Positions 8,933 to 51,588 of a DNA stretch of 64,000 bases are shown in pieces. Position numbers and translations under genes: made by a program. Origin of the DNA: Amycolatopsis sp. WQ 127309 (GTDB lineage Bacteria > Actinomycetota > Actinomycetes > Mycobacteriales > Pseudonocardiaceae); assembly GCF_023023025.1 (NCBI RefSeq), contig NZ_CP095481.1:7763001-7827000 (forward strand), in the 5' to 3' direction. The notes beneath the pieces are model-generated. The model was not told where the DNA came from, did not search any database, and worked only from the letters and a program-made list of their open reading frames with translations. Each line of letters begins with the position of its first letter. Position 1 is the first letter of the stretch.

Positions 8933-9748
8933 TCACCGGTAGTCGGTGGACAGAGCCAGGTCACGCCACTGGTCGAGTTCACCGGCGACCGTGGCCAGCT
9001 TGTCCTCCACGAGCCGGACGCAGTCGCTGCCCAGCTGCAGCCGCAACGGCGGCTCCGCGGTCGTGACCAGACGGCGGATGGCGGTGACCGCGCGAGCCGG
9101 GTCGCCGGGCTGGTGGCCGTCGTTCTTCTCGATCGCCGAGGTCACGGCGCCGACGCTGCCGGCGTAGGCGGGCACGGTGACCGCGACCTGGCGACGACTG
9201 GCAGGGGCGAGGAAGTCCGTGCGGAACGAGCCGGGTTCGACGACGGTGATGTCGATCCCGAGCGGCCCGACCTCCGCGCGCAGCGCCTCGCTGAGGCCTT
9301 CGACGGCGAACTTGGCTGCGCTGTAGAGGCCGCGGCCCGCGCCGGAGGCGAACCCCGCGCTGGAGCTGATGTTCACGACGTGACCCGCGCCCTGGGCCCG
9401 CAACACCGGCAACGCGGCGCGGGTGACGTTGAGCAGCCCGAAGACGTTGGTGTCGAACAGCGCGCGCACGTCGGCGTCCGGCACCTCCTCGACGGCGCCG
9501 AAGAGCCCGTAACCGGCGTTGTTGACGAGCACGTCGATGCGGCCGAACCGTTCGACGGCCGCGGCGACGGCGGCTTGCGCCTGGGCCGGATCGGTGACGT
9601 CGAGGCGGACGTCCAGCCGCGGCCCGGCCGGGTCGCCGGGCGGCGGGTTCCGCGCGGCCGCGACGACCTGGTCGCCCGCGGCGAGGGCGGCGTCGGTGAG
9701 CGCCCGGCCGAAGCCGCGGGACGCGCCGGTGATGAACCAGACAGACAT
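8933..9748 (-). CDS. Short-chain dehydrogenase/reductase
   Basis: 271 residues. TGASRGFGRALTDAAL cofactor loop, LDVTDPAQA, VLVNNAGYGLFGAVEE, NISSSAG, catalytic YSAAKFAVEGLSEAL and VEPGSFRTDFLAP: a classical oxidoreductase of the kind usually annotated SDR family/short-chain type dehydrogenase. It lies directly downstream of the MmyB-type regulator gene (22 bp gap, same strand), so that regulator may control it. Substrate not deducible. Confidence 0.85.
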   Translation of the reverse strand: MSVWFITGASRGFGRALTDAALAAGDQVVAAARNPPPGDPAGPRLDVRLDVTDPAQAQAAVAAAVERFGRIDVLVNNAGYGLFGAVEEVPDADVRALFDTNVFGLLNVTRAALPVLRAQGAGHVVNISSSAGFASGAGRGLYSAAKFAVEGLSEALRAEVGPLGIDITVVEPGSFRTDFLAPASRRQVAVTVPAYAGSVGAVTSAIEKNDGHQPGDPARAVTAIRRLVTTAEPPLRLQLGSDCVRLVEDKLATVAGELDQWRDLALSTDYR

Positions 9749-40602: not shown

Positions 40603-40631
40603 GGGAACCCCGGCCGCCCGGGACCCGACTG
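40603..40631 (+). promoter_or_regulatory. ECF-type promoter, copper motif copy 1 (PepSY operon)
   Basis: GGGAAC (40603-40608), 17-nt spacer, CGACTG (40626-40631). Predicted start of transcription near 40637, giving a leader of about 20 nt with ribosome site AAGGGAG before ATG 40658. Three more copies with the same spacing lie in the copper island. Confidence 0.65.
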
Positions 40632-40657
40632 TTGACGTGGCGGCTGAAGGGAGCCCG

Positions 40658-41989
40658 ATGTCCATCGAAGAGCGCGAAAAGCTCGTACCGGAGCCGGTTG
40701 CCGAGCCGCGGGCCGGCTGGGCGTCGATCCGGCCGCTGGTGCTGCGCCTGCACTTCTACGCCGGTGTCTTCATCAGCCCGTTCCTGCTCGTGGCCGCGGT
40801 CACCGGGCTGGCCTACGTCTGGGCACCGCAGGCGGAACAGGCCGTCTACGACCGGGAACTGCACGTGCCCGCGGCGCCGGGCACCGTCCCGCTGGACCAG
40901 CAGGCCGCGGCGGCGCGGGCCCTCGTGCCGGACGGCACGCTGACCGGGGTGCGGCCCGGGATGACGCCGACCGACACGACGCAGGTGATCTTCGACCGGC
41001 CCGGTTTGGAAGCCAGCTACCACTGGACGGTGTTCGTCGACCCGCACACCGGCGACGTCCGCGGCCGGCTGGAGACCTACGGCTCGGGGCAGGCGATGCC
41101 GTTGCGGAGCTGGATCGACGTCCTGCACCGCAGCCTCCACCTCGGCGACTTCGGCCGCCTGTACAGCGAACTGGCCGCCAGCTGGCTGTGGGTCGTCGCG
41201 CTGGCCGGCCTGGCGCTCTGGCTCGGCCGGCGCCGCCGCAAGCGCGTGTCGGCGCCAAGCCCCCGGGCCAAGCTGCTGACCTGGCACGGCCGAACCGGCC
41301 TGGTTCTCGCGACCGGGCTGCTGTTCCTGTCCGCCACCGGCCTGACGTGGTCGCAGTACGCCGGCGACAGCATCAGCGAACTGCGCTCGCAGCTGGACTG
41401 GACCTCACCTTCGGTGTCGGCCACGGTCCCCGCGTCGAGCGGACGCGACATCGGCTTCGACGGCGCGCGCGAAGCCACGCTGCGGGCCGGGCTGGCCGAC
41501 CCGGTCGAGGTCCGCCCGCCGGCCGGGCCGGGCAAGGCCTACGTCGTGGCGCAGGTCGGCCGGAGCTGGCCGGTGCGGGCCGATTCGATGGCCGTCGACC
41601 CGGCGACCGGGACCGTCACCGACACCCTGCGGTTCGCGGACTACAACCTCGCGGCGAAGCTGAGCACGTGGGGGATCGACGCCCACATGGGCTTCCTCTT
41701 CGGGATCTGGAACCAGATCGCCTTGACGCTGCTGGCGGTCGTGCTGGTCGCCGTGATCGTCTGGGGCTACCGGATGTGGTGGCTGCGGCGGCCGACGCGC
41801 GGCGAGGCCCGGTTCGGCCGGCCGCCGGCGCGCGGAGCGTGGCGGCGGATCCCGGGTCGGGTGCTGGCCCCGGCGGTGGTCGTGGTCGCCGTCGTCGGCT
41901 ACTACCTGCCGTTGTTCGGGTTGTCACTGCTGGGTTTCGTCATCGTGGACGGCCTGCTCGAGCTGCGCCGGCGGAAGGTGGACGCATGA
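40658..41989 (+). CDS. PepSY-associated transmembrane protein
   Basis: 443 residues, four to five membrane helices: LRLHFYAGVFISPFLLVAAVTGLAYV, WLWVVALAGLALWLG, HGRTGLVLATGLLFLSATGLTW and, near the end, FGIWNQIALTLLAVVLVAVIVWGYRMWWLRRP. The family (DUF2534/PiuB-like) often supports metal reduction or uptake at the membrane. PepSY-like stretches lie between (HWTVFVDPHTGDVRG, DSMAVDPATGTVTD). First gene of a copper-related run, with the shared promoter element 27 nt upstream and a 4-bp overlap with the DUF5134 gene. Confidence 0.85.
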   Translation: MSIEEREKLVPEPVAEPRAGWASIRPLVLRLHFYAGVFISPFLLVAAVTGLAYVWAPQAEQAVYDRELHVPAAPGTVPLDQQAAAARALVPDGTLTGVRPGMTPTDTTQVIFDRPGLEASYHWTVFVDPHTGDVRGRLETYGSGQAMPLRSWIDVLHRSLHLGDFGRLYSELAASWLWVVALAGLALWLGRRRRKRVSAPSPRAKLLTWHGRTGLVLATGLLFLSATGLTWSQYAGDSISELRSQLDWTSPSVSATVPASSGRDIGFDGAREATLRAGLADPVEVRPPAGPGKAYVVAQVGRSWPVRADSMAVDPATGTVTDTLRFADYNLAAKLSTWGIDAHMGFLFGIWNQIALTLLAVVLVAVIVWGYRMWWLRRPTRGEARFGRPPARGAWRRIPGRVLAPAVVVVAVVGYYLPLFGLSLLGFVIVDGLLELRRRKVDA

Positions 41990-42597
41990 TCACGACTGAA
42001 GGCCTGCGCTGGATCCTGACGGCGTTGTTCGTGCTCACCGGGGCGTTCTGCGCCTACCGGTGCGCGCGGCAGGGGACCGCCGCGGAGCGGGTCGGCGACG
42101 TCCTCCACGTCGTCATGTGCGTCGCGATGGTGGTGATGGCGTGGCCTGCGGGCATGGGCTTCGCGCGGCTACCGCAGACCGTCCTGTTCGGACTCGCGGC
42201 GGTGTGGTTCGCCGGCGTGGCGGTGACCGGCGCCGCGCACGCCGACCACGGCGGCCGCCGGGCGGCGAGCTACCACGTGGTGATGATGGCGGCCATGGCG
42301 TGGATGGTGTTCGTGATGCCGCGGGCGATGAGCGGCATGTCCGGCGGCGGGATGATGGACATGCCTGGGCATCCCGGGATGACCATGCCCGTCGCCGGCT
42401 CCGGCAGTGGCACTCCGGTCGACGTGCGGGTCGTCGCGCTCGTGCTGCTGGCCGCGTTCGTGGTGGCGGGCCTGGTCTTCCTGTCCCGGGCGTTCGACGA
42501 CGCGCGGGCGTCGGGGCCGCCCCTGCGGTTCCTGGGTCGCGGCGCCGACGGCGCGATGGCCCTCGGCATGGGCCTGATGCTGCTGACCATGGCCTGA
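41986..42597 (+). CDS. DUF5134 membrane protein, Met/His-rich
   Basis: 203 residues, about five membrane helices (WILTALFVLTGAFCAY, VLHVVMCVAMVVMAWPAGMG, VLFGLAAVWFAGVAVTGAAH, VVALVLLAAFVVAGLVF). The loop MSGMSGGGMMDMPGHPGMTMP is rich in Met and His, a typical copper-binding composition. The family's role is unknown but it is often next to copper genes in actinobacteria. ATGA overlap with the PepSY gene. Confidence 0.82.
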   Translation: MITTEGLRWILTALFVLTGAFCAYRCARQGTAAERVGDVLHVVMCVAMVVMAWPAGMGFARLPQTVLFGLAAVWFAGVAVTGAAHADHGGRRAASYHVVMMAAMAWMVFVMPRAMSGMSGGGMMDMPGHPGMTMPVAGSGSGTPVDVRVVALVLLAAFVVAGLVFLSRAFDDARASGPPLRFLGRGADGAMALGMGLMLLTMA

Positions 42598-42642
42598 CAC
42601 GACCGTCCGAAGTGGACGTCCGAAGTGGGCTGGATCACAACG

Positions 42643-42671
42643 CGGAACCGCGGGTGGTCTCCGGCCGACGT
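42643..42671 (+). promoter_or_regulatory. ECF-type promoter, copper motif copy 2 (CopD-CtaG gene)
   Basis: CGGAAC (42643-42648), 17-nt spacer, CGACGT (42666-42671). Transcription would start at about 42677-42679, on the GTG start of the next gene, which has no usable ribosome site: a leaderless mRNA. Confidence 0.6.
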
Positions 42672-42678
42672 CTGAGGG

Positions 42679-44598
42679 GTGAAGACGTCCGGGTTCCGCG
42701 CCGTGGTCGTGACGGCGGTGGTGGCCGGGCTGGCGCTGCTGCTGCTCGTGGTCGCCACGGCGGGCGATGTGTACGGCCCGCTGGGCAACGCCGACCCGGG
42801 GCCGCTGACGACCTACGGCTTCGCGGTGGTCCGGTTCGTGGCCGACGCCGCGGCCGCAGGAGCGTTCGGTGGCTTGGTGTTCGCCGCGTTCGTCGCGCCC
42901 GGACGACGGGGCGGGGCCCTGTCGGCCGACGCCTTCGCGGCCTCCCGGTTCGCCGCCGGCAGTGCGGCGTGCTGGCTGGCGGCGGCCGCGGTCGCCGTGC
43001 CGTTCTCGGCGGCGGTCGCGGCGGGGCTGCCGGTCGCGCGCGTGCTGCGGCCCGAGGTGTTCCTGCCGACGCTCAGCGCCACCGAGGAACCGAAGGCCTG
43101 GCTCTGCGTCGCGGTCGCGGCGGCGGTGGTGACCGCGCTGGCCTGGCCCGCGATGGCCTGGCGCACCGTCGTCGCGGCCGCCGTGGTCGCCGCCGCCGGG
43201 CTGCTCCCGCTGGTCGCCGTCGGGCACGTGTCGGTCGGCGCGGGACACGACGTGGCGACCAACGCGATGTTCTGGCACGTGCCGGCGGCGAGTGCCTGGC
43301 TCGGCGCGCTGGTGGCGTTGCCGGCCCGGCTGCGCCGGGGGCCGGTGCCGGACTTGGTGCTGCGCCGCTACCACCGGCTGTCGGTGACGTGCTTCGCCGT
43401 GGTCGCGACGTCCGGGGCGGTCTCCGGTCTTGTCCTGACCCGGCCGGACGGCTTGGTCGGCCGCTACGGTCTCGTGCTCGCCGTCGAGACCGCTTTGCTC
43501 GTCGGCGCGGGGCTGCTGCTGGCCGCGTGGCGACGGCGGCAGCGCGGCGTCCGGCTGGTCGTGGCGGAGCTGCTCCTGCTGGCGCTGGGAACCGGCGGCT
43601 CGGCCGCGCTGACCGTGCTCGTGCCGCCGGCTTTCCCGAACCATCCGGCGACCGTGCAGGAAACCGTGCTCGGCTACGGCCTCGACGCCCCGCAGACGTT
43701 CGCCCGGCTGGTCGGGGAGTGGCGTCCGGACCTGCTGTTCGCGCCCGTCGCGCTGATCGCGGTGACGGCCTACCTGCTCGCAGTGCGGCGGCTGCGACGC
43801 CGTGGTGACCACTGGCCGCCGGGGCGGGTGGTCGCCTGGCTCGCCGGCTGGGCGATCGTCCTCGTCGTGACGTCCTCGGGACTCGGCGTCTACGCGCCCG
43901 GGACGTTCAGCCTGCACATGGTCACGCACATGGCGTTGAACATGTTCGCGCCGGTGCTGCTCGTGCTCGGCGGCCCGGTCACCCTCGCGCTGCGTGCGCT
44001 CCCCGCGGGTGCCCACGGCGACGTCCCCGGTGCGCGGGAGTGGGTGACGTCGTTGCTGCACGCGCCGGTGACCCGGTTCTTCGCGCACCCCGCGGTGGCC
44101 GCGATCCTGTTCGCCGGGTCGTTCTACGTGCTCTACTTCTCGGACCTGTTCGGTCAGGCGATGCTCTACCACTGGGCGCACCAGCTGATGAAGGCCCACT
44201 TCCTGGCGTCGGGTTACCTGTTCGCCTGGGTCGTGGTCGGTGCGGACCGGACACCCCGGCAGCTGCCGCACCTCGCGCGGCTGGGGATGGTGTTCGCGGT
44301 CATGCCGTTCCACGCTTTCTTCGGCGTGATCCTGATGAGCAAACAGACCGTGATCGCCTCCACCTACTACCACTACCTCGCGCTGCCGTGGGCCGGTGAC
44401 CTGCTCGCCGATCAGCGCCTCGGCGGCGGCATCGCCTGGGCCAGTGGGGAAATCCCGATGGTCGTCATGGTGGTCGCCCTGCTGGTGCAGTGGTCGCGCG
44501 ACGACGAACGCCGCGCCCGGCGGGCCGACCGCAGCGGCGACGGGGACTTCGACGCCTACAACGCGATGCTCGCCCAGCTCGCGGGACGAAGGAACTGA
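42679..44598 (+). CDS. CopD-CtaG fusion: copper import/cytochrome oxidase assembly membrane protein
   Basis: 639 residues with many membrane helices. The N-terminal half is CopD-like (GHVSVGAGHDVATNAMFWHVPAASAWLGALVALPARL, RYHRLSVTCFAVVATSGAVSGLVL). The C-terminal half is caa3-type CtaG (VYAPGTFSLHMVTHMALNMFAPVLLVLGGPVTLALRALP, FYVLYFSDLFGQAMLYHWAHQLMKAHFLASGYLFAW, VMPFHAFFGVILMSKQTVIASTYYHYLALPW) with conserved His residues for copper. It probably moves copper across the membrane and supplies CuA/CuB sites. Directly upstream of copA (9 bp). Confidence 0.88.
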   Translation: MKTSGFRAVVVTAVVAGLALLLLVVATAGDVYGPLGNADPGPLTTYGFAVVRFVADAAAAGAFGGLVFAAFVAPGRRGGALSADAFAASRFAAGSAACWLAAAAVAVPFSAAVAAGLPVARVLRPEVFLPTLSATEEPKAWLCVAVAAAVVTALAWPAMAWRTVVAAAVVAAAGLLPLVAVGHVSVGAGHDVATNAMFWHVPAASAWLGALVALPARLRRGPVPDLVLRRYHRLSVTCFAVVATSGAVSGLVLTRPDGLVGRYGLVLAVETALLVGAGLLLAAWRRRQRGVRLVVAELLLLALGTGGSAALTVLVPPAFPNHPATVQETVLGYGLDAPQTFARLVGEWRPDLLFAPVALIAVTAYLLAVRRLRRRGDHWPPGRVVAWLAGWAIVLVVTSSGLGVYAPGTFSLHMVTHMALNMFAPVLLVLGGPVTLALRALPAGAHGDVPGAREWVTSLLHAPVTRFFAHPAVAAILFAGSFYVLYFSDLFGQAMLYHWAHQLMKAHFLASGYLFAWVVVGADRTPRQLPHLARLGMVFAVMPFHAFFGVILMSKQTVIASTYYHYLALPWAGDLLADQRLGGGIAWASGEIPMVVMVVALLVQWSRDDERRARRADRSGDGDFDAYNAMLAQLAGRRN

Positions 44599-44607
44599 GG
44601 AGAACGC

Positions 44608-46848
44608 ATGACCACCGCAACCCCGGTCACCGGGGCGGTCCGCACGGTCGACCTGGCCGTGTCGGGCATGACGTGCGCGGCCTGCTCGGCGCGGGTCGAA
44701 CGCACCCTGAACAAGCTCGACGGCGTCCGCGCCTCGGTCAACTACGCCACCGAGCGGGCCACCGTGCAGGTGCCCGCCGAGTTCGACGACGACGTGCTGA
44801 TCGAGCGGATCCGCAAGGCGGGCTACGGCGCCCGCCTCCGGGGTGACGACGACGAGGACCTCACGCTGCGGCGGGTCCGCGACCTGCTGCGCCGGCTGGT
44901 CGTCGCGGCGGTGCTCGCCGTGCCGCTGGGCAACCTCTCCATCACCCTGGCCCTGGTCCCGTCGCTGCGGTTCCCCGGCTGGCAGCTGCTCTGCCTCGGC
45001 CTCGCGGTGCCGGTGGTGTTCTGGGCGGCGCTGCCGTTCCACCGGGCCGCCCTGCGCAACCTGCGGCACCGATCGTCCAGTATGGACACGCTGGTGTCGC
45101 TCGGTGTCCTGGCTTCCTTCACGTGGTCGGCGTGGGCGACCTTGGCCGGCGGCCACGACCCCGGCTACTGGGTCGGGTTCGGGCCGACCGCGGCCGGCGC
45201 GGACGCGATCTACCTCGACGTCGCCGCCGGCGTGACGACCTTCCTGCTGGCCGGCCGCTACTTCGAGAGCCGGTCACGCCGCAGCGCCGCCGGGCTGCTG
45301 GCCGCTCTCGACGCGCTCGCCGCGAAAGACGTGCGGGTGCTGCGCGACGGCGTCGAGCGGATGGTGCCGGTGGGGGAGCTGGCCGTCGGCGACCTGTTCG
45401 TGGTGAAGCCGGGGGAGGCGCTCGCCGCCGACGGCGTGGTCGACAGTGGACAGTCCACTGTGGATCTCAGCGCGGTCACCGGGGAGCCGGTGCCCGCGGA
45501 GGCCGGGCCGGGTGACCGGGTGATCGGCGCGTCGGTGAACCGGGACGGCCGCCTGGTCGTGCGCGCCACGGCCGTCGGCGCCCACACCCAGCTCGCGCAG
45601 ATGACCGCGCTCGCCGAGCGGGCCCAGGCGCGCAAGGCGTCGGTGCAGCGGCTGGTGGACCGGATCTGCGCGGTGTTCGTGCCGGTCGTGCTCGTGCTGT
45701 CGCTGCTCACCCTCGGCGGGTGGCTGCTCACCGGGCACCCGGTGCGTGACGCGTTCACCGCGGCGGTGTCGGTGCTGATCATCGCCTGCCCGTGCGCGCT
45801 GGGCCTGGCGACGCCGACCGCGCTGATGGCCGGGGTCGGCCGCGGTGTCCAGCTGGGCATCCTCATCAAGGGCCCGGACGCGCTGGAGGCCGGCCGGCGG
45901 ATCGACACCGTCGTGCTCGACAAGACCGGCACCGTGACCACCGGCCGGATGACCGTCACCGGTGTCCACCCGGCGCCCGGCCGCAGCCGCGGCGACCTGC
46001 TGTGGTTCGCCGGCGCGACCGAAGCCGGCTCCGAGCACGCCATCGCCGCGGCCGTCGTGACGGCGGCGCGCGCGGAACTCGCCGACCTTCCCGACGTCAC
46101 CGGGTTCACGGCGCTGCCCGGGCTGGGCGCGCAGGGCACAGTGGACGGTCGCGTGGTCCTGGCCGGCAGCCCGAAGCTGTTCGCCGACCGCGCCGTCGTC
46201 CTCGACGCCGGGTTCGAGGCGCTCGTGGACGCCGCACACCGGGCCGGCGCGGTGCCGGTGCTCGTCGCCGTCGACGGCGAGGTGGCCGGGCTGCTCGTGG
46301 TCCGCGACGTCGTGAAGCCCTCGGCCGCGGCGGCCGTGACCGCGCTGCGTGAGCTGGGCCTGCGGACCGTGCTGCTCACCGGCGACCACGAGATCCCGGC
46401 CCGGGCCGTCGGCGCCGAGATCGGCGTCGACGAGGTCTGGGCGGGCGTGCTGCCGGCTGACAAGGCCCGTGCGGTCGAGGAGCTGCGCGCCGCGGGCTCC
46501 CGGGTCGCCGTGGTCGGCGACGGCGTCAACGACGGCCCGGCGCTCGCGACCGCCGACCTCGGCATGGCCATGGCCCACGGCAGCGACATCGCGCTCCGCT
46601 CGGCCGACGTGGTCCTCGTGCGGGAGGACCTGAATGTCGTCCCGGACGCCATCCGGCTCGCCGACCACACGCTGCGGACGATCCGCGGCAACCTCGTGTG
46701 GGCCTTCGGCTACAACGTGGCCGCGCTCCCGCTGGCCGCGCTCGGCCTGCTCAACCCCTTGATCGCCGGCGCCGCGATGTCGCTGTCGTCGGTCCTGGTG
46801 GTCTCCAACAGCCTGCGGCTGCGGTCGTTCAGCCGGCCGAGGGCGTGA
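44608..46848 (+). CDS. copA: Copper-transporting P1B-type ATPase
   Basis: 746 residues. One N-terminal HMA domain with GMTCAACSARVERTL; actuator TGEPVP; membrane copper site CPC in IIACPCALGLATPTALM; phosphorylation DKTGTVTTG; HP motif SEHAIAAAV; hinge GDGVNDGPALATADLGMAM; and C-terminal YNVAALPLAALGLLNPLIAGAAMSLSSVLVVSN with the Tyr-Asn and Met-Ser-Ser ligands of CopA-type (Cu+) pumps. It exports Cu(I) using ATP. Same operon as the CopD-CtaG gene. Paralogue at 49246. Confidence 0.93.
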   Translation: MTTATPVTGAVRTVDLAVSGMTCAACSARVERTLNKLDGVRASVNYATERATVQVPAEFDDDVLIERIRKAGYGARLRGDDDEDLTLRRVRDLLRRLVVAAVLAVPLGNLSITLALVPSLRFPGWQLLCLGLAVPVVFWAALPFHRAALRNLRHRSSSMDTLVSLGVLASFTWSAWATLAGGHDPGYWVGFGPTAAGADAIYLDVAAGVTTFLLAGRYFESRSRRSAAGLLAALDALAAKDVRVLRDGVERMVPVGELAVGDLFVVKPGEALAADGVVDSGQSTVDLSAVTGEPVPAEAGPGDRVIGASVNRDGRLVVRATAVGAHTQLAQMTALAERAQARKASVQRLVDRICAVFVPVVLVLSLLTLGGWLLTGHPVRDAFTAAVSVLIIACPCALGLATPTALMAGVGRGVQLGILIKGPDALEAGRRIDTVVLDKTGTVTTGRMTVTGVHPAPGRSRGDLLWFAGATEAGSEHAIAAAVVTAARAELADLPDVTGFTALPGLGAQGTVDGRVVLAGSPKLFADRAVVLDAGFEALVDAAHRAGAVPVLVAVDGEVAGLLVVRDVVKPSAAAAVTALRELGLRTVLLTGDHEIPARAVGAEIGVDEVWAGVLPADKARAVEELRAAGSRVAVVGDGVNDGPALATADLGMAMAHGSDIALRSADVVLVREDLNVVPDAIRLADHTLRTIRGNLVWAFGYNVAALPLAALGLLNPLIAGAAMSLSSVLVVSNSLRLRSFSRPRA

Positions 46849-47035
46849 GGACCTCGTCCAGCACGCCCGCCTTGACGTCGGCGACGAGTACCTCCAGCCG
46901 GTCGAGGCTCATCTCGATCCGCTGGCCGAAGTCGTCGGTGATGACGGTCGCGCGCTCCGGCGGAGCGCCTTCGGCCACGTGCAGCTCCGGGCAGCCGCAG
47001 TTGCACGGGCCGCAGAAGGTCGCGATGTGACGCAG
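46829..47035 (-). CDS. Cys-rich small protein, probable metal-binding, without canonical start codon
   Basis: About 68 residues read from CTG 47035 to TGA at 46829: FCGPCNCGCPELHV (four closely spaced Cys), then RATVITDDFGQRIEMSLDRLEVLVADVKAGVLDEVL. The codon bias and acidic, well-ordered C-terminus show a real gene, but no ATG, GTG or TTG precedes the Cys motif in this frame. The frame begins at the stop of the anti-sigma gene (47040-47042), so re-initiation at CTG, or a +1 shift on that stop (GCC-TGA-C), is possible. Likely copper-binding by location. The 3' end overlaps copA by 20 bp. Confidence 0.55.
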   Translation of the reverse strand: MRHIATFCGPCNCGCPELHVAEGAPPERATVITDDFGQRIEMSLDRLEVLVADVKAGVLDEVLTPSAG

Positions 47036-47039
47036 GTCG

Positions 47040-47777
47040 TCAGGCCGCGCGGCGACGGCTGGCCGGCAGGTGCGGGAACCGGCGGCGCCGGGCCTGACCG
47101 CCGTCCTCGGCGCGGGGTTCCCAGCCGAGCGTGACGTCGTCGTGCGCCGCGGGCTCGACGCGGGCGCCCGTGCCCGGCGTCGACGTGCGGCGGTGCTGGC
47201 GGCGGACGCCGTAGAGGAGCCCGACCCCGGCCACGAGCAGGCCGTGGGACAGCACCCGGGACACGGTCACCTCGCCGTCGAAGAGGTCGATGCCCGACAC
47301 GAGACCGAGGACGGCCACGAACCCGGCCAGCGCGGGCAGCAGCCCCGACGCCGTCGCCGGGCGCAGCGCCGCCCAGAGCAGGCCGAAGCCCATCGCGAGG
47401 TTCCAGGCCGCGCTCTCGTTGCCGAGGTGCACCGCCATCGCCATCATCCCGCCGTGGCCGGCGTGGCCGACGTCCGCGCCGAGGAGCTCGGCGAACCCGA
47501 GGCCGCTCTGGACCAGCGCGACGAGGGCCAGCGCGATCCGCAGGCCCCAGCGCTGGGCCGAGGGCGCCGGGACCTCGGTGAGGATGCGCTCGGTCAGGTC
47601 GGGCACCTGCGGTGCCTCGCGGACCAGCAGCAGCCGCCGCAGCCGCACGGCGTCGTCGTGCCACGCCCGGCAGTGCGGGCAGCCCGCGAGGTGGCGGTCC
47701 ACCACCGCGTCCGGCAGCGAACCCGCTTCACCGTCGATCCGGGCCGAGAGCGCTTCGCGGAAGTCGGAGCAGTTCAC
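47040..47777 (-). CDS. Zinc-finger (zf-HC2) anti-sigma factor, membrane-bound
   Basis: 245 residues from GTG 47777 (homologues typically begin M-N/D-C). N-terminal zf-HC2 with DRHLAGCPHCRAWHDD (HxxxCxxC), then about five membrane helices, including LRIALALVALVQSGLGF and GLLPALAGFVAVLGLVSG. The loop ADVGHAGHGGMMAMAVHLGNES is rich in His and Met and might sense copper. It is divergent from the SigC-like gene at 47840, its probable partner. A GGGAAC-N17-CGACTA element ends 7 nt before GTG 47777, fitting a leaderless transcript. GTG 47783 is the alternative start. Confidence 0.85.
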   Translation of the reverse strand: MNCSDFREALSARIDGEAGSLPDAVVDRHLAGCPHCRAWHDDAVRLRRLLLVREAPQVPDLTERILTEVPAPSAQRWGLRIALALVALVQSGLGFAELLGADVGHAGHGGMMAMAVHLGNESAAWNLAMGFGLLWAALRPATASGLLPALAGFVAVLGLVSGIDLFDGEVTVSRVLSHGLLVAGVGLLYGVRRQHRRTSTPGTGARVEPAAHDDVTLGWEPRAEDGGQARRRRFPHLPASRRRAA

Positions 47778-47784
47778 CTCCACA

Positions 47785-47813
47785 TAGTCGCGCGGAGACC
47801 CGTCGGAGTTCCC
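47785..47813 (-). promoter_or_regulatory. ECF-type promoter, copper motif copy 3 (anti-sigma gene)
   Basis: On the minus strand: GGGAAC (47813-47808), 17-nt spacer, CGACTA (47790-47785). Start of transcription expected at about 47779-47776, at GTG 47777. It lies in the 62-bp gap before the SigC-like gene. Confidence 0.6.
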
Positions 47814-47839
47814 GGGGGTGTGGGTTACGGTGTCGTTCC

Positions 47840-48412
47840 GTGAACTCCAGCCGGGATCGTGACGACGAACGGATCACCGCGCTCGCCCTCGCCGCGGCGC
47901 GCGGTGACCAGCGCGCCTACGCGGACTGGGTGCGCTCGACCCAGGCCGACGTCTGGCGGTTCGTGGCCCACCTGACCGACTCGGTGATCGCCGACGACCT
48001 GACGCAGGAAACGTACGCCCGCGCGGTGACCGCGCTCACCCGGTTCGCCGGGCGGTCGTCGTCGCGCACCTGGCTGCTGTCGATCGCCCGCCGGGCCGTG
48101 GTCGACCACTTCCGGGCGCGCTCGGCGCGACCGCGGCTGTCCGGTCAGGACTGGACGGCGGCGGCCGAAGAACAGTCCGCCCGCGGCCGGGCGGGCTCGG
48201 CCGGGTTCGAAGAGGTCGTCGAGGTCGGGCTGTTGTTGCGGGACCTGGACGGCGAGCGGCGCGAGGCGCTCGTGCTGACCCAGCTGCTCGGCTACACCTA
48301 CGCCGAGGCCGCCGAGATCTGCGGCTGCCCGATCGGGACCGTGCGTTCCCGCGTCGCCCGGGCCCGCGAGGACCTGCTGACCGCGCGCGACGAGCGCGGC
48401 AACGTCATCTGA
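47840..48412 (+). CDS. ECF RNA polymerase sigma factor, SigC-like (copy 1)
   Basis: 190 residues. Region 2: STQADVWRFVAHLTDSVIADDLTQETYARAVTALTRFAG, TWLLSIARRAVVDHFR. Region 4: RREALVLTQLLGYTYAEAAEICGCPIGTVRSRVARAREDLL. The pattern matches mycobacterial SigC, a factor linked to copper acquisition there. It is divergent from the zf-HC2 anti-sigma gene and convergent with a second SigC-like gene, in the middle of the copper genes. GTG start. Likely reads the GGAAC-N17-CGAC promoters around it (inference). Confidence 0.88.
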   Translation: MNSSRDRDDERITALALAAARGDQRAYADWVRSTQADVWRFVAHLTDSVIADDLTQETYARAVTALTRFAGRSSSRTWLLSIARRAVVDHFRARSARPRLSGQDWTAAAEEQSARGRAGSAGFEEVVEVGLLLRDLDGERREALVLTQLLGYTYAEAAEICGCPIGTVRSRVARAREDLLTARDERGNVI

Positions 48413-48413
48413 G

Positions 48414-48430
48414 GAGTCCACAGTGGACTC
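48414..48430. terminator. Palindrome between the two convergent sigma genes
   Basis: GAGTCCAC-A-GTGGACTC, 8-bp arms, directly after the stop of the first sigma gene and ending 2 bp before the stop of the second. It can serve as a two-way terminator; it also contains the 11-mer TCCACAGTGGA that recurs in the window. Confidence 0.45.
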
Positions 48431-48432
48431 GC

Positions 48433-49008
48433 TCAGCTGACCGCCGGATACCCCGGCCGGACTCCGGCCATCGCCGCCAGCAGGTCTTCCCGTGCCCGGG
48501 CGACGCGGGAGCGGATCGTGCCCACGGGACACCCGCAGACTTCCGCGGCGTCCGCATAGGACAGTCCCAGCGTCTGCGTCAGCACGAACGCGTCGCGCCG
48601 GTCGACGTCGAGGGCCTGGACCAGCTGGTCGAGCACGACCTGCTCGTCGAACCGCGCCGCGCGGGCCGGCTCGGCGCGCTCCGCCGCGGCCTCCCAGTCG
48701 GTCACCGACGACCGGCGCGGCCGGGCCTGCAGCGCGCGGATGTGGTCGGCGACCGTCCGCCGCGCGATGGACAGCAGCCAGGTCCGGGCCGAGGAGTCGC
48801 CCTTGAACCGGTGCAGGCTGCCCAGCGCCCGCAGGTAGGTCTCCTGGCTCAGGTCGTCCGCCGACTGCGCGTCGCAGAGCCCGGCGACGAACCGCCAGAC
48901 GAAGGGCTGGGTGGCGCGGAGGAACTGCTCGAGAGCCGGGCCGTCGCCGCGGCCGGCGAGCAGGGCCCACCGCGTGATGTCGGCGTCGTTCGCGCGTTCT
49001 GGCCTCAC
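48433..49008 (-). CDS. ECF RNA polymerase sigma factor, SigC-like (copy 2)
   Basis: 191 residues. WALLAGRGDGPALEQFLRATQPFVWRFVAGLCDAQSADDLSQETYLRALGSLHRFKG, TWLLSIARRTVADHIRALQARPRRSS, DAFVLTQTLGLSYADAAEVCGCPVGTIRSRVARAREDLL. Clearly paralogous to the sigma gene at 47840 but with different surface residues and no anti-sigma gene of its own. Start is probably GTG 49008 (weak ribosome site). Divergent from the truncated CopZ/CopA2 pair. Confidence 0.88.
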   Translation of the reverse strand: MRPERANDADITRWALLAGRGDGPALEQFLRATQPFVWRFVAGLCDAQSADDLSQETYLRALGSLHRFKGDSSARTWLLSIARRTVADHIRALQARPRRSSVTDWEAAAERAEPARAARFDEQVVLDQLVQALDVDRRDAFVLTQTLGLSYADAAEVCGCPVGTIRSRVARAREDLLAAMAGVRPGYPAVS

Positions 49009-49066
49009 ACCCGCTACTACGTCGCCCACGCCGATCCGGTTGAAAACGATCTTGAAGAAAACCGGC

Positions 49067-49095
49067 GGGAACCAAACGCTTCCCGCACCCGACCT
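49067..49095 (+). promoter_or_regulatory. ECF-type promoter, copper motif copy 4 (CopZ-like/CopA2)
   Basis: GGGAAC (49067-49072), 17-nt spacer, CGACCT (49090-49095). Transcription would start near 49101, giving a leader of about 35 nt with ribosome site GGAAGGTGG before ATG 49136. A CCGGTT / AACCGG inverted repeat (49036-49065) lies just upstream. Confidence 0.65.
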
Positions 49096-49135: not shown

Positions 49136-49245
49136 ATGACCCAGACGACGTACGCGGTGACCGGGATGACCTGCGGGCACTGCGCCAGTTCGGTCCGCGA
49201 GGAGCTCGGCGAGCTGGTCCGGGTCGCGGGCTGCCAGCTCGTCCG

Positions 49246-49249
<4 letters not shown>
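49136..49249 (+). CDS. Truncated CopZ-like copper chaperone peptide
   Basis: 37 residues: TYAVTGMTCGHCASSVREELGEL followed by VRVAGCQLVR and a stop. The first strand, the GMTCGHC copper loop and the first helix of an HMA chaperone are intact. The end looks like the final strand of the same fold (usually EAGYQLV). About 30 central residues are missing, as if by an in-frame deletion. Good ribosome site (GGAAGG). It overlaps the ATG of CopA2 (ATGA). It may still bind Cu(I) through the two Cys, or be a decayed chaperone. Confidence 0.7.

Positions 49250-51588
<2,339 letters not shown>

What the first reader, a model, noticed from the sequence alone, without database searches (positions are those of the whole stretch)
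40603..49095. Shared GGAAC-N17-CGAC promoter element at four copper transcription units
The same bipartite element with an exactly 17-nt spacer occurs before the PepSY operon (40603-40631), the CopD-CtaG gene (42643-42671), the anti-sigma gene (47785-47813, minus strand) and the CopZ-like/CopA2 pair (49067-49095). Each sits at promoter distance; for CopD-CtaG and the anti-sigma gene the predicted transcript start falls on the start codon, explaining the missing ribosome sites. With about 72% GC assumed, a rough hand estimate is under one chance match in the whole window on both strands. Two SigC-like sigma genes lie inside the cluster. This suggests a self-contained ECF-sigma copper regulon with an autoregulated anti-sigma factor.
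Basis: partly seen in the sequence, partly recalled or inferred. Interest (0 to 1): 0.85.

Follow-up and report, generated by a model that had tools for sequence, protein, structure and literature searches.

The report
SigC-type copper regulon with autoregulated anti-sigma
A short DNA switch shared by four copper gene groups in an Amycolatopsis-type soil bacterium is a real promoter kept in mycobacteria and other relatives, and it points to a candidate for the missing brake on SigC, a sigma factor linked to coping with copper shortage.

Summary
GGAAC-N17-CGAC lies at all four stated places, all non-coding; the window's other three copies lie in genes. The bare pattern is not rare (301 copies genome-wide), so the rarity estimate fails and conservation carries the case. 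The element precedes the anti-sigma gene in 30 of 30 Amycolatopsis-type loci fetched (own included) and 56 of 80 named mycobacterial, Rhodococcus, Nocardia and metagenomic loci. In a pooled set it precedes 95 of 121 anti-sigma genes with spacer 17, against at most 2 for any other spacer from 10 to 24. Usually CGAC-N9-start: probably leaderless. Most PepSY, DUF5134 and copper-ATPase relatives carry it too. SigC genes do not (1 of 98): only the inhibitor is in the regulon. SigC and anti-sigma co-occur (45 of 45 versus 1 of 15 genomes). In Mycobacterium asiaticum the element precedes a chalkophore-type operon, a copper ATPase and the anti-sigma, beside sigC. Best reading: an ECF36/SigC regulon, probably for copper shortage, with an autoregulated membrane anti-sigma as likely sensor. 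Inferred, not shown: direction, copper binding, sigma binding. Autoregulation is not universal (24 of 80 lack it).

The parts
40604..40629 (+). GGAAC-N17-CGAC element before the PepSY-DUF5134 operon; CGAC ends 28 nt before the ATG
   Evidence: 28 of 35 PepSY relatives have it upstream
40658..41989 (+). PepSY_TM membrane protein
   Evidence: Pfam PF03929 E 1.4e-68
41986..42597 (+). DUF5134 membrane protein, overlaps the PepSY stop codon
   Evidence: PF17197 E 9.1e-32
42644..42669 (+). GGAAC-N17-CGAC element before CopD-CtaG; CGAC-N9-GTG (leaderless geometry)
   Evidence: in sense before 14 of 72 CopD-CtaG relatives
42679..44598 (+). CopD-CtaG fusion membrane protein
   Evidence: PF09678 E 4.6e-90; CopD and CtaG NCBIfam models match below cut-off
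44608..46848 (+). CopA1, P1B Cu-type ATPase, probably in one operon with CopD-CtaG
   Evidence: TIGR01511 over cut-off
46829..47038 (-). Possible small Cys-rich ORF (CGPCNCGCPE) downstream of the anti-sigma gene; start codon not settled
   Evidence: translation; no Pfam match
47040..47777 (-). zf-HC2 anti-sigma factor with four predicted membrane helices; start refined to GTG 47777 (the listed ORF starts at 47783)
   Evidence: PF13490; alignments A1 and A2; model pLDDT 81.6; start geometry
47787..47812 (-). GGAAC-N17-CGAC element before the anti-sigma gene; CGAC-N9-GTG (leaderless geometry)
   Evidence: upstream of 95 of 121 relatives, 56 of 80 named loci
47840..48412 (+). sigma1, SigC-like ECF sigma factor, divergent from the anti-sigma gene
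   Evidence: best PDB matches M. tuberculosis SigC domains; NF007231 209 bits, cut-off 219
48433..49029 (-). sigma2, SigC-like ECF sigma factor, an old paralogue of sigma1
   Evidence: tree
49068..49093 (+). GGAAC-N17-CGAC element before the CopZ-like ORF and CopA2; 42-nt leader
   Evidence: also before CopZ in the 2 relatives counted (L079, L081)
49136..49249 (+). CopZ-like ORF, 37 aa, shorter than the 68-aa CopZ of two relatives
   Evidence: PF00403 partial; comparison
49246..51588 (+). CopA2, P1B Cu-type ATPase
   Evidence: TIGR01511 over cut-off

Best explanation
The element is a bipartite -35/-10 promoter read by the SigC-type (ECF36) sigma factors encoded in the cluster. It drives PepSY-DUF5134, CopD-CtaG-CopA1, CopZ-CopA2 and the anti-sigma gene. 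The sigma genes are expressed from other promoters; active sigma makes more of its own membrane inhibitor, a negative feedback loop. The anti-sigma holds the sigma factor through its N-terminal zinc-finger domain and senses extracytoplasmic copper status through a conserved His/Glu/Asp/His set at the outer face of its four-helix bundle; loss of copper there probably releases the sigma factor. Shown here: the element, its fixed spacing, its conservation, the leaderless geometry, and sigma/anti-sigma co-occurrence and neighbourhood. Inferred: sigma identity, direction (shortage rather than excess), copper binding, and which sigma the anti-sigma binds.
For: Spacer 17 in 95 of 121 anti-sigma upstream regions, other spacers at most 2; 78 of 95 with identical CGAC-to-Cys distance. 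Also 28 of 35 PepSY, 55 of 70 DUF5134, 54 of 74 CopA and 2 of 2 CopZ relatives. SigC (E 2e-37 or better) is in 45 of 45 genomes with the anti-sigma and 1 of 15 without; Fisher P 9e-13, uncorrected for kinship. SigC upstream regions carry the element in sense in 1 of 98; [quoted passage not shown] Mycobacterium asiaticum locus L188: element before a PPE-TauD-FcoT-FadD-like-ACP-NRPS-like run, before a CopA1-like ATPase (the CtpB counterpart by my reading) and before the anti-sigma, with sigC next door; ctpB and the nrp operon are taken as direct SigC targets with almost identical predicted promoter elements (PMC7924339 passages). Copper link: anti-sigma fused to CopC-CopD in L072, L256 and L259, and CopC-CopD on the same frame in L261, whose zinc finger is seen by eye only. 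Shortage link: SigC prevents copper starvation (PMC7924339); C. glutamicum sigmaC regulon activated on copper deprivation (PMC7337898 passage); isocyanide-synthase cluster with two divergent elements beside SigC in L108. Sensor site: E123, D166, H180 invariant and H119 at least 90% in 24 sequences; the matching H115, E119, D162, H176 invariant in 11 mycobacterial-type sequences; helices 77-100, 114-140, 142-169, 174-179 and 181-200 would put all four near the outer ends.
Against: 24 of 80 named loci (mostly Mycolicibacterium and Mycobacterium) and 13 of 27 class-wide matches lack the exact element before the anti-sigma, although all 24 genomes keep SigC over the cut-off, so autoregulation is not universal. 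CopD-CtaG has it in sense in only 14 of 72 (five Amycolatopsis-type, nine Nocardia). Spacer 17 is cleanest for the anti-sigma; before CopA genes spacer 14 also occurs 9 times in 74 and before PepSY spacer 13 3 times in 35. Only 21 of 60 genomes pass the curated SigC cut-off, and the window's own two do not (209 and 205 of 219 bits). CopZ/CopA ATPases usually export copper. No expression or binding data. Two old SigC paralogues and one anti-sigma leave the pairing open. The window anti-sigma gives no DUF2275 match at E 0.001. H119 is missing in L071 and L073. No significant fold match for the model.
Confidence: 0.8

Rival explanations
1. Same promoters and same sigma family, but the regulon answers copper excess: CopA/CopZ export copper and the anti-sigma releases the sigma factor on copper binding.
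For: Two P1B Cu ATPases and a CopZ-like ORF; His/Met-rich loop GHAGHGGMMAM in the anti-sigma.
Against: Characterised SigC relatives answer shortage (PMC7924339; PMC7337898); chalkophore-type and isocyanide-synthase operons carry the element in relatives; CopD-CtaG fits import or oxidase assembly (recalled).
Confidence: 0.15
2. The element is the promoter of a different ECF sigma factor with a similar consensus, and the SigC genes are only neighbours.
For: The genome encodes many ECF-type sigma factors (42 matches to the SigC model in G000, most of those listed weak); other actinobacterial ECFs read GGAAC-like boxes (recalled).
Against: Co-occurrence with SigC across 60 genomes; frequent neighbourhood of SigC, anti-sigma and copper genes; counterparts of reported SigC targets carry the element in L188.
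Confidence: 0.06
3. The element is a repressor operator or a chance recurrence of codon-like words in GC-rich DNA.
For: 301 genome copies; of the 40 examined, 26 were labelled inside coding frames, one of them wrongly; the excess over the reversed pattern could partly be codon bias.
Against: Exact spacing and distance to start conserved across families; nearly absent in sense before SigC in the same loci.
Confidence: 0.02

Closest known systems
Mycobacterium tuberculosis SigC (ECF36) regulon: ctpB and ppe1-nrp
   Same: SigC-type sigma; Cu ATPase target; in the M. asiaticum locus L188 a CopA-like ATPase, the anti-sigma and a chalkophore-type operon carry the element
   Different: Window has two SigC paralogues beside an anti-sigma gene and no NRPS operon in the cluster; M. 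tuberculosis sigC is described as monocistronic with no anti-SigC identified (PMC7924339)
Putative RscA (anti-SigC, Rv0093c) of mycobacteria
   Same: Anti-sigma gene near sigC; a clade that lacks sigC is reported to lack the putative rscA too (PMC6917791 passages); Rv0093c has an anti-sigma signature and is fused to sigC in MAC (PMC7563442 passage)
   Different: That rscA is Rv0093c is my reading; orthology of the window protein to either was not tested directly (no M. tuberculosis genome read); RscA function is only putative in print
Corynebacterium glutamicum sigmaC
   Same: ECF sigma whose regulon is reported to be activated on copper deprivation or disturbed heme a insertion (PMC7337898)
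   Different: Its reported target there is the cytochrome bd operon; C. glutamicum matches the SigC model below its cut-off
[quoted passage not shown]
   Same: Anti-sigma controlled ECF sigma factor
   Different: [quoted passage not shown] here only the anti-sigma carries the element

Membership tests
ECF36 / SigC sigma factors | Sequence similarity to M. tuberculosis SigC regions 2 and 4 | tested here: met
   Best PDB hits 2o7g and 2o8x for sigma1; 2o7g best and 2o8x fourth for sigma2
ECF36 / SigC sigma factors | NCBIfam SigC equivalog NF007231 over its curated cut-off | tested here: not met
   209 and 205 bits against 219; 21 of 60 relatives pass. So the window genes are SigC-like members of the group, not named SigC equivalogs
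ECF36 / SigC sigma factors | Placement among SigC-like proteins in a tree | tested here: inconclusive
   sigma1, sigma2 and the third copy fall among mycobacterial, Nocardia and Rhodococcus SigC-like rows, but no outgroup ECFs were included
ECF-type promoter | GGAAC -35 and CGxC-like -10 at fixed spacing and distance to start | tested here: met
ECF-type promoter | Mapped transcript start and transcription by the sigma factor | not testable with these tools
   needs 5'-end mapping and run-off assays
zf-HC2 membrane anti-sigma factors | N-terminal zinc-finger motif H-x3-C-x2-C | tested here: met
   PF13490; H31, C35, C38 invariant
zf-HC2 membrane anti-sigma factors | Binds and inhibits its sigma factor | not testable with these tools
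   -
DUF2275 membrane domain (reported on some ECF36 fusions) | PF10039 match | tested here: inconclusive
   No match for the window protein at E 0.001; the mycobacterial homologue P0124 matches just over the cut-off
Copper-starvation regulon | Induced by copper limitation | not testable with these tools
   Inferred from SigC literature and chalkophore-type targets in relatives

The most novel reading that the evidence does not exclude
The anti-sigma is the missing anti-SigC factor and is itself an extracytoplasmic copper sensor: a His/Glu/Asp/His site (H119, E123, D166, H180) at the outer face of its four-helix bundle holds copper when it is plentiful, and metal loss frees SigC. Because only the inhibitor is in the regulon, the circuit is a pure negative-feedback copper-starvation switch, kept in many members of its order and in other orders of the class, which also drives chalkophore-type biosynthesis.
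Probability: 0.4. Interest if true: 0.85.

Novelty: new variant of a known kind. Interest (0 to 1): 0.72.

Why it matters
How SigC senses copper shortage was listed as an open question, with no anti-SigC factor identified (PMC7924339), and a review files SigC under a proposed conformational mechanism while noting forms fused to anti-sigma factors in its group (PMC8999054). The conserved promoter makes the regulon readable in many actinobacterial genomes, marks an isocyanide-synthase cluster (L108) as a candidate copper-chelator pathway, and gives four named residues to test as a copper-sensing site in harmless soil bacteria.

Tried and rejected
Rarity of the bare motif as the main argument: rejected, 301 genome copies. 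Idea that loci lacking the element before the anti-sigma have lost SigC: rejected, all 24 genomes have SigC over the cut-off. Idea that the sigma genes are autoregulated by the element: rejected, 1 of 98. Fusion of SigC to an anti-sigma in G055, the one genome with SigC but no anti-sigma match: its stop-to-stop frame shows no zinc-finger or membrane extension by eye. Fold search of the anti-sigma model: no match at E 0.001; weak partial matches to MucA cytoplasmic domain bound to AlgU (E 3-4.4). First genome-contig scan with the window protein found no relative and alignment A1 was too divergent to scan with; the mycobacterial alignment A2 worked.

A full list of promoter-position sites in the own genome was not made: of 301 bare matches only the 40 GGGAACY-type sites were examined one by one, with a coding score trained on ten ORFs of this window; the loci L001-L030 and L141-L150 were not examined. 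Of the 40, 26 were labelled inside a coding frame and 14 not. The score is imperfect: it labelled the PepSY site (L133) 'inside', because downstream PepSY codons enter the scored stretch, so other labels may be wrong too. Of the 14, seven had a downstream frame scoring over 20: the window's anti-sigma and CopZ/CopA2 sites (L134, L135), DUF5134 at 6.25 Mb (L126), and L117, L119, L128 and L140, which were not pursued.

Literature: ten searches, all papers seen as listings or passages only. The 2021 ECF classification and a guessed identifier meant for the ChIP paper cited as [11] in PMC7924339 were not held, so the published SigC consensus was not compared letter by letter.

Rows dropped before counts: own-genome locus L104; two short L079 pieces and the L151 sigma hit with an in-frame stop from the tree; the own locus L241 and the second-half fragments L269 and L270 from the count (27 rows remain, 14 with the element; L243, L245 and L268 repeat loci seen earlier). 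One search pools loci that partly repeat genomes, so its counts are not independent.
Full report
WHAT IS THERE. The window lies in an 11.13 Mb single-contig genome of an Amycolatopsis-type bacterium (close homologues of its anti-sigma carry Amycolatopsis names; relative G029 has a contig of the same length, 8,045,121, as the A. jiangsuensis source of P0004). Between 40.6 and 51.6 kb lie PepSY_TM, DUF5134, CopD-CtaG, CopA1, a zf-HC2 anti-sigma gene, two SigC-like sigma genes, a short CopZ-like ORF and CopA2. Both sigma proteins have an M. tuberculosis SigC domain as best solved relative, but both score just under the curated SigC cut-off (209 and 205 of 219 bits). Their recognition helices are nearly the same by eye, so both may read the same promoter.

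THE ELEMENT. GGAAC-N17-CGAC is present at the four places claimed, all non-coding, while the three other window copies are inside genes. Genome-wide the bare pattern has 301 matches against 185 for the reversed pattern, so rarity is not the argument. The stricter GGGAACY-N16-CGAC has 40 matches (reversed control 22). I examined all 40: 26 were labelled inside coding frames, one of them (the PepSY site) wrongly, and 14 not. Seven of the 14 had a downstream frame scoring over 20: the window's anti-sigma and CopZ/CopA2 sites, a DUF5134 gene beside a third SigC-like gene at 6.25 Mb (L126/L104), and L117, L119, L128 and L140, not pursued. The CopD-CtaG site has C before GGAAC and is not among the 40.

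CONSERVATION. The anti-sigma was found in 45 of 60 genomes (own included). In all 30 loci fetched from that search (the best matches, own included) the element with spacer 17 sits just before the gene. In the 40 larger loci L061-L100, from the same genus and other families of the order, it does so in 37, the exceptions being L065, L078 and L080; most of these repeat the genomes of the first set. A scan of named genomes with a mycobacterial alignment (best 80 of 104 relatives kept) gave 56 of 80 with the exact element: 52 at -35, three at -36 and one at -41. In a pooled set of 129 loci (L061-L110 without L104, and L151-L230) the element lies in sense upstream of 95 of 121 anti-sigma, 28 of 35 PepSY, 55 of 70 DUF5134, 54 of 74 CopA, 14 of 72 CopD-CtaG and 2 of 2 CopZ genes. 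For the anti-sigma other spacers from 10 to 24 gave at most 2 and the antisense strand 7. Other groups are less clean: spacer 14 occurs 9 times before CopA and spacer 13 3 times before PepSY. The 14 CopD-CtaG genes are five Amycolatopsis-type and nine Nocardia ones; elsewhere the element is often antisense (50 of 72), which fits divergent DUF5134 or PepSY genes. A class-wide sample matched 27 of 197 genomes, own included, and 14 of 27 N-terminal matches outside the own genome had the exact element.

AGAINST UNIVERSALITY. The 24 named loci without the element before the anti-sigma all lie in genomes with a SigC gene over the model's cut-off. Of these 24, I mapped six (L194, L195, L200, L204, L212, L224): in five of them other copper genes still have the element upstream or beside them, and L195, a 9 kb contig, showed only the anti-sigma. 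So autoregulation of the anti-sigma has been lost or replaced in that group.

CIRCUIT. SigC genes carry the element in sense in 1 of 98 cases; it lies antisense upstream of 89, because the anti-sigma or a copper gene is commonly transcribed away from them. The sigma gene is therefore outside its own regulon and only the inhibitor is fed back. The anti-sigma transcript is probably leaderless: 78 of 95 have CGAC exactly 15 nt before the conserved Cys codon, i.e. CGAC-N9-start when the Cys is codon 3. The extended -10 reads CGACTA: T in 70 and A in 83 of 90 distinct sequences.

WHICH SIGMA. A strong SigC match (E 2e-37 or better) is present in 45 of 45 genomes with the anti-sigma and in 1 of 15 without it; the best match of the other 14 is 3e-21 or weaker (Fisher P 9e-13, not corrected for kinship). 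By the curated cut-off only 21 of 60 count as SigC. In the tree (56 rows, no outgroup) sigma1 groups with L106, L108 and L076, two of which are second SigC copies of their genomes, and sigma2 groups with L081 and the third own copy, so they are old paralogues. In the closest relative (L079) a sigma2-like gene, aligned in two pieces, lies just upstream of the anti-sigma in the same direction; in L076 a sigma1 relative lies divergent from a short zf-HC2 gene and then the long anti-sigma. The window looks like a merger of two such systems around one anti-sigma; which sigma it binds is open.

DIRECTION. In Mycobacterium asiaticum (L188) the element precedes a run of PPE, TauD, FcoT, AMP-ligase, carrier-protein and NRPS-like genes, a CopA1-like ATPase (52% identity; the CtpB counterpart by my reading) and the anti-sigma, with sigC beside them. 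PMC7924339 (passages) reports that SigC prevents copper starvation, that induced sigC raises ctpB and nrp operon genes, that earlier ChIP work found almost identical predicted SigC promoter elements before both, and that no anti-SigC factor had been identified. PMC9600254 (passages) ties nrp operon genes to growth in low copper. PMC7337898 (passages) says that copper deprivation led to activation of the C. glutamicum sigmaC regulon. In L108, beside a second SigC, two divergent elements precede an MFS / asparagine-synthase / P450 / isocyanide-synthase (PF05141) run and a binding-protein / FecCD uptake system. Copper shortage is therefore more likely than excess, but this is inference.

SENSOR. 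In 24 anti-sigma sequences C5, R9, S13, D17, H31, C35, C38, Q92, E123, A130, D166 and H180 are invariant and H119 is at least 90% conserved (L071 and L073 lack it); in 11 mycobacterial-type ones the matching H115, E119, D162 and H176 are invariant. The zf-HC2 domain is fused to CopC and CopD in L072, L256 and L259; L261 has CopC and CopD on the frame that matched the anti-sigma alignment, with no zf-HC2 match at E 0.001. Copper binding is untested.

KNOWN OR NEW. A putative anti-SigC gene, rscA, is already named in mycobacteria, and a clade lacking sigC is reported to lack it too (PMC6917791, passages); in MAC species sigC is reported fused to Rv0093c (PMC7563442, passages); some ECF36 members are fused to anti-sigma factors with DUF2275 (PMC8999054, passages). 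I found no report, in searches of an open-licence library, of the anti-sigma as a conserved leaderless member of the SigC regulon, of its link to copper genes by a shared promoter, or of a copper site in it. The published SigC consensus could not be read, so part of the motif may be known.

VERDICT.

Noticed in passing
window 49136-49249; L079 from 11380; L081 near 9044-9124: The CopZ-like ORF has 37 aa whereas the two relatives with the gene at the same place have 68 aa and a similar beginning and end; it looks internally shortened in frame.
   Followed up: partly
window 46829-47038 (-): Small Cys-rich reading frame (CGPCNCGCPE) directly downstream of the anti-sigma gene, no Pfam match.
   Followed up: partly
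L108 9429-17834: Cluster beside a second SigC gene with an isocyanide synthase (PF05141), P450, asparagine synthase, MFS and a binding-protein/FecCD uptake system, and two divergent elements; candidate copper-chelator pathway.
   Followed up: partly
L106 8356-19733: Second SigC gene with a short zf-HC2 gene, CopC, an ABC transporter with weak ZnuA-like binding protein, acyl-CoA dehydrogenase, CoA-transferase and AMP-ligase, several preceded by the element.
   Followed up: partly
L072 8145-10568; L256, L259, L261: Single frames joining an anti-sigma region to CopC and CopD domains; the zinc finger of L261 has no Pfam match.
   Followed up: partly
G000:C1:6249056-6251006 (L104, L126): Third SigC-like gene with a DUF5134 gene preceded by the element, about 1.56 Mb from the window cluster.
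   Followed up: partly
alignments A1 and A2: Most anti-sigma C-termini end in -AA or -VA, and the mycobacterial-type ones in a conserved RGRRRxHLxxxDGxA-like tail; possibly a protease recognition end.
   Followed up: no
L151 15285-15851: The SigC-like hit of Mycobacterium helveticum has one in-frame stop; left as it is.
   Followed up: no
L162: A contig labelled Bifidobacterium breve MAG carries a mycobacterial-type anti-sigma gene, probably a binning error.
   Followed up: no
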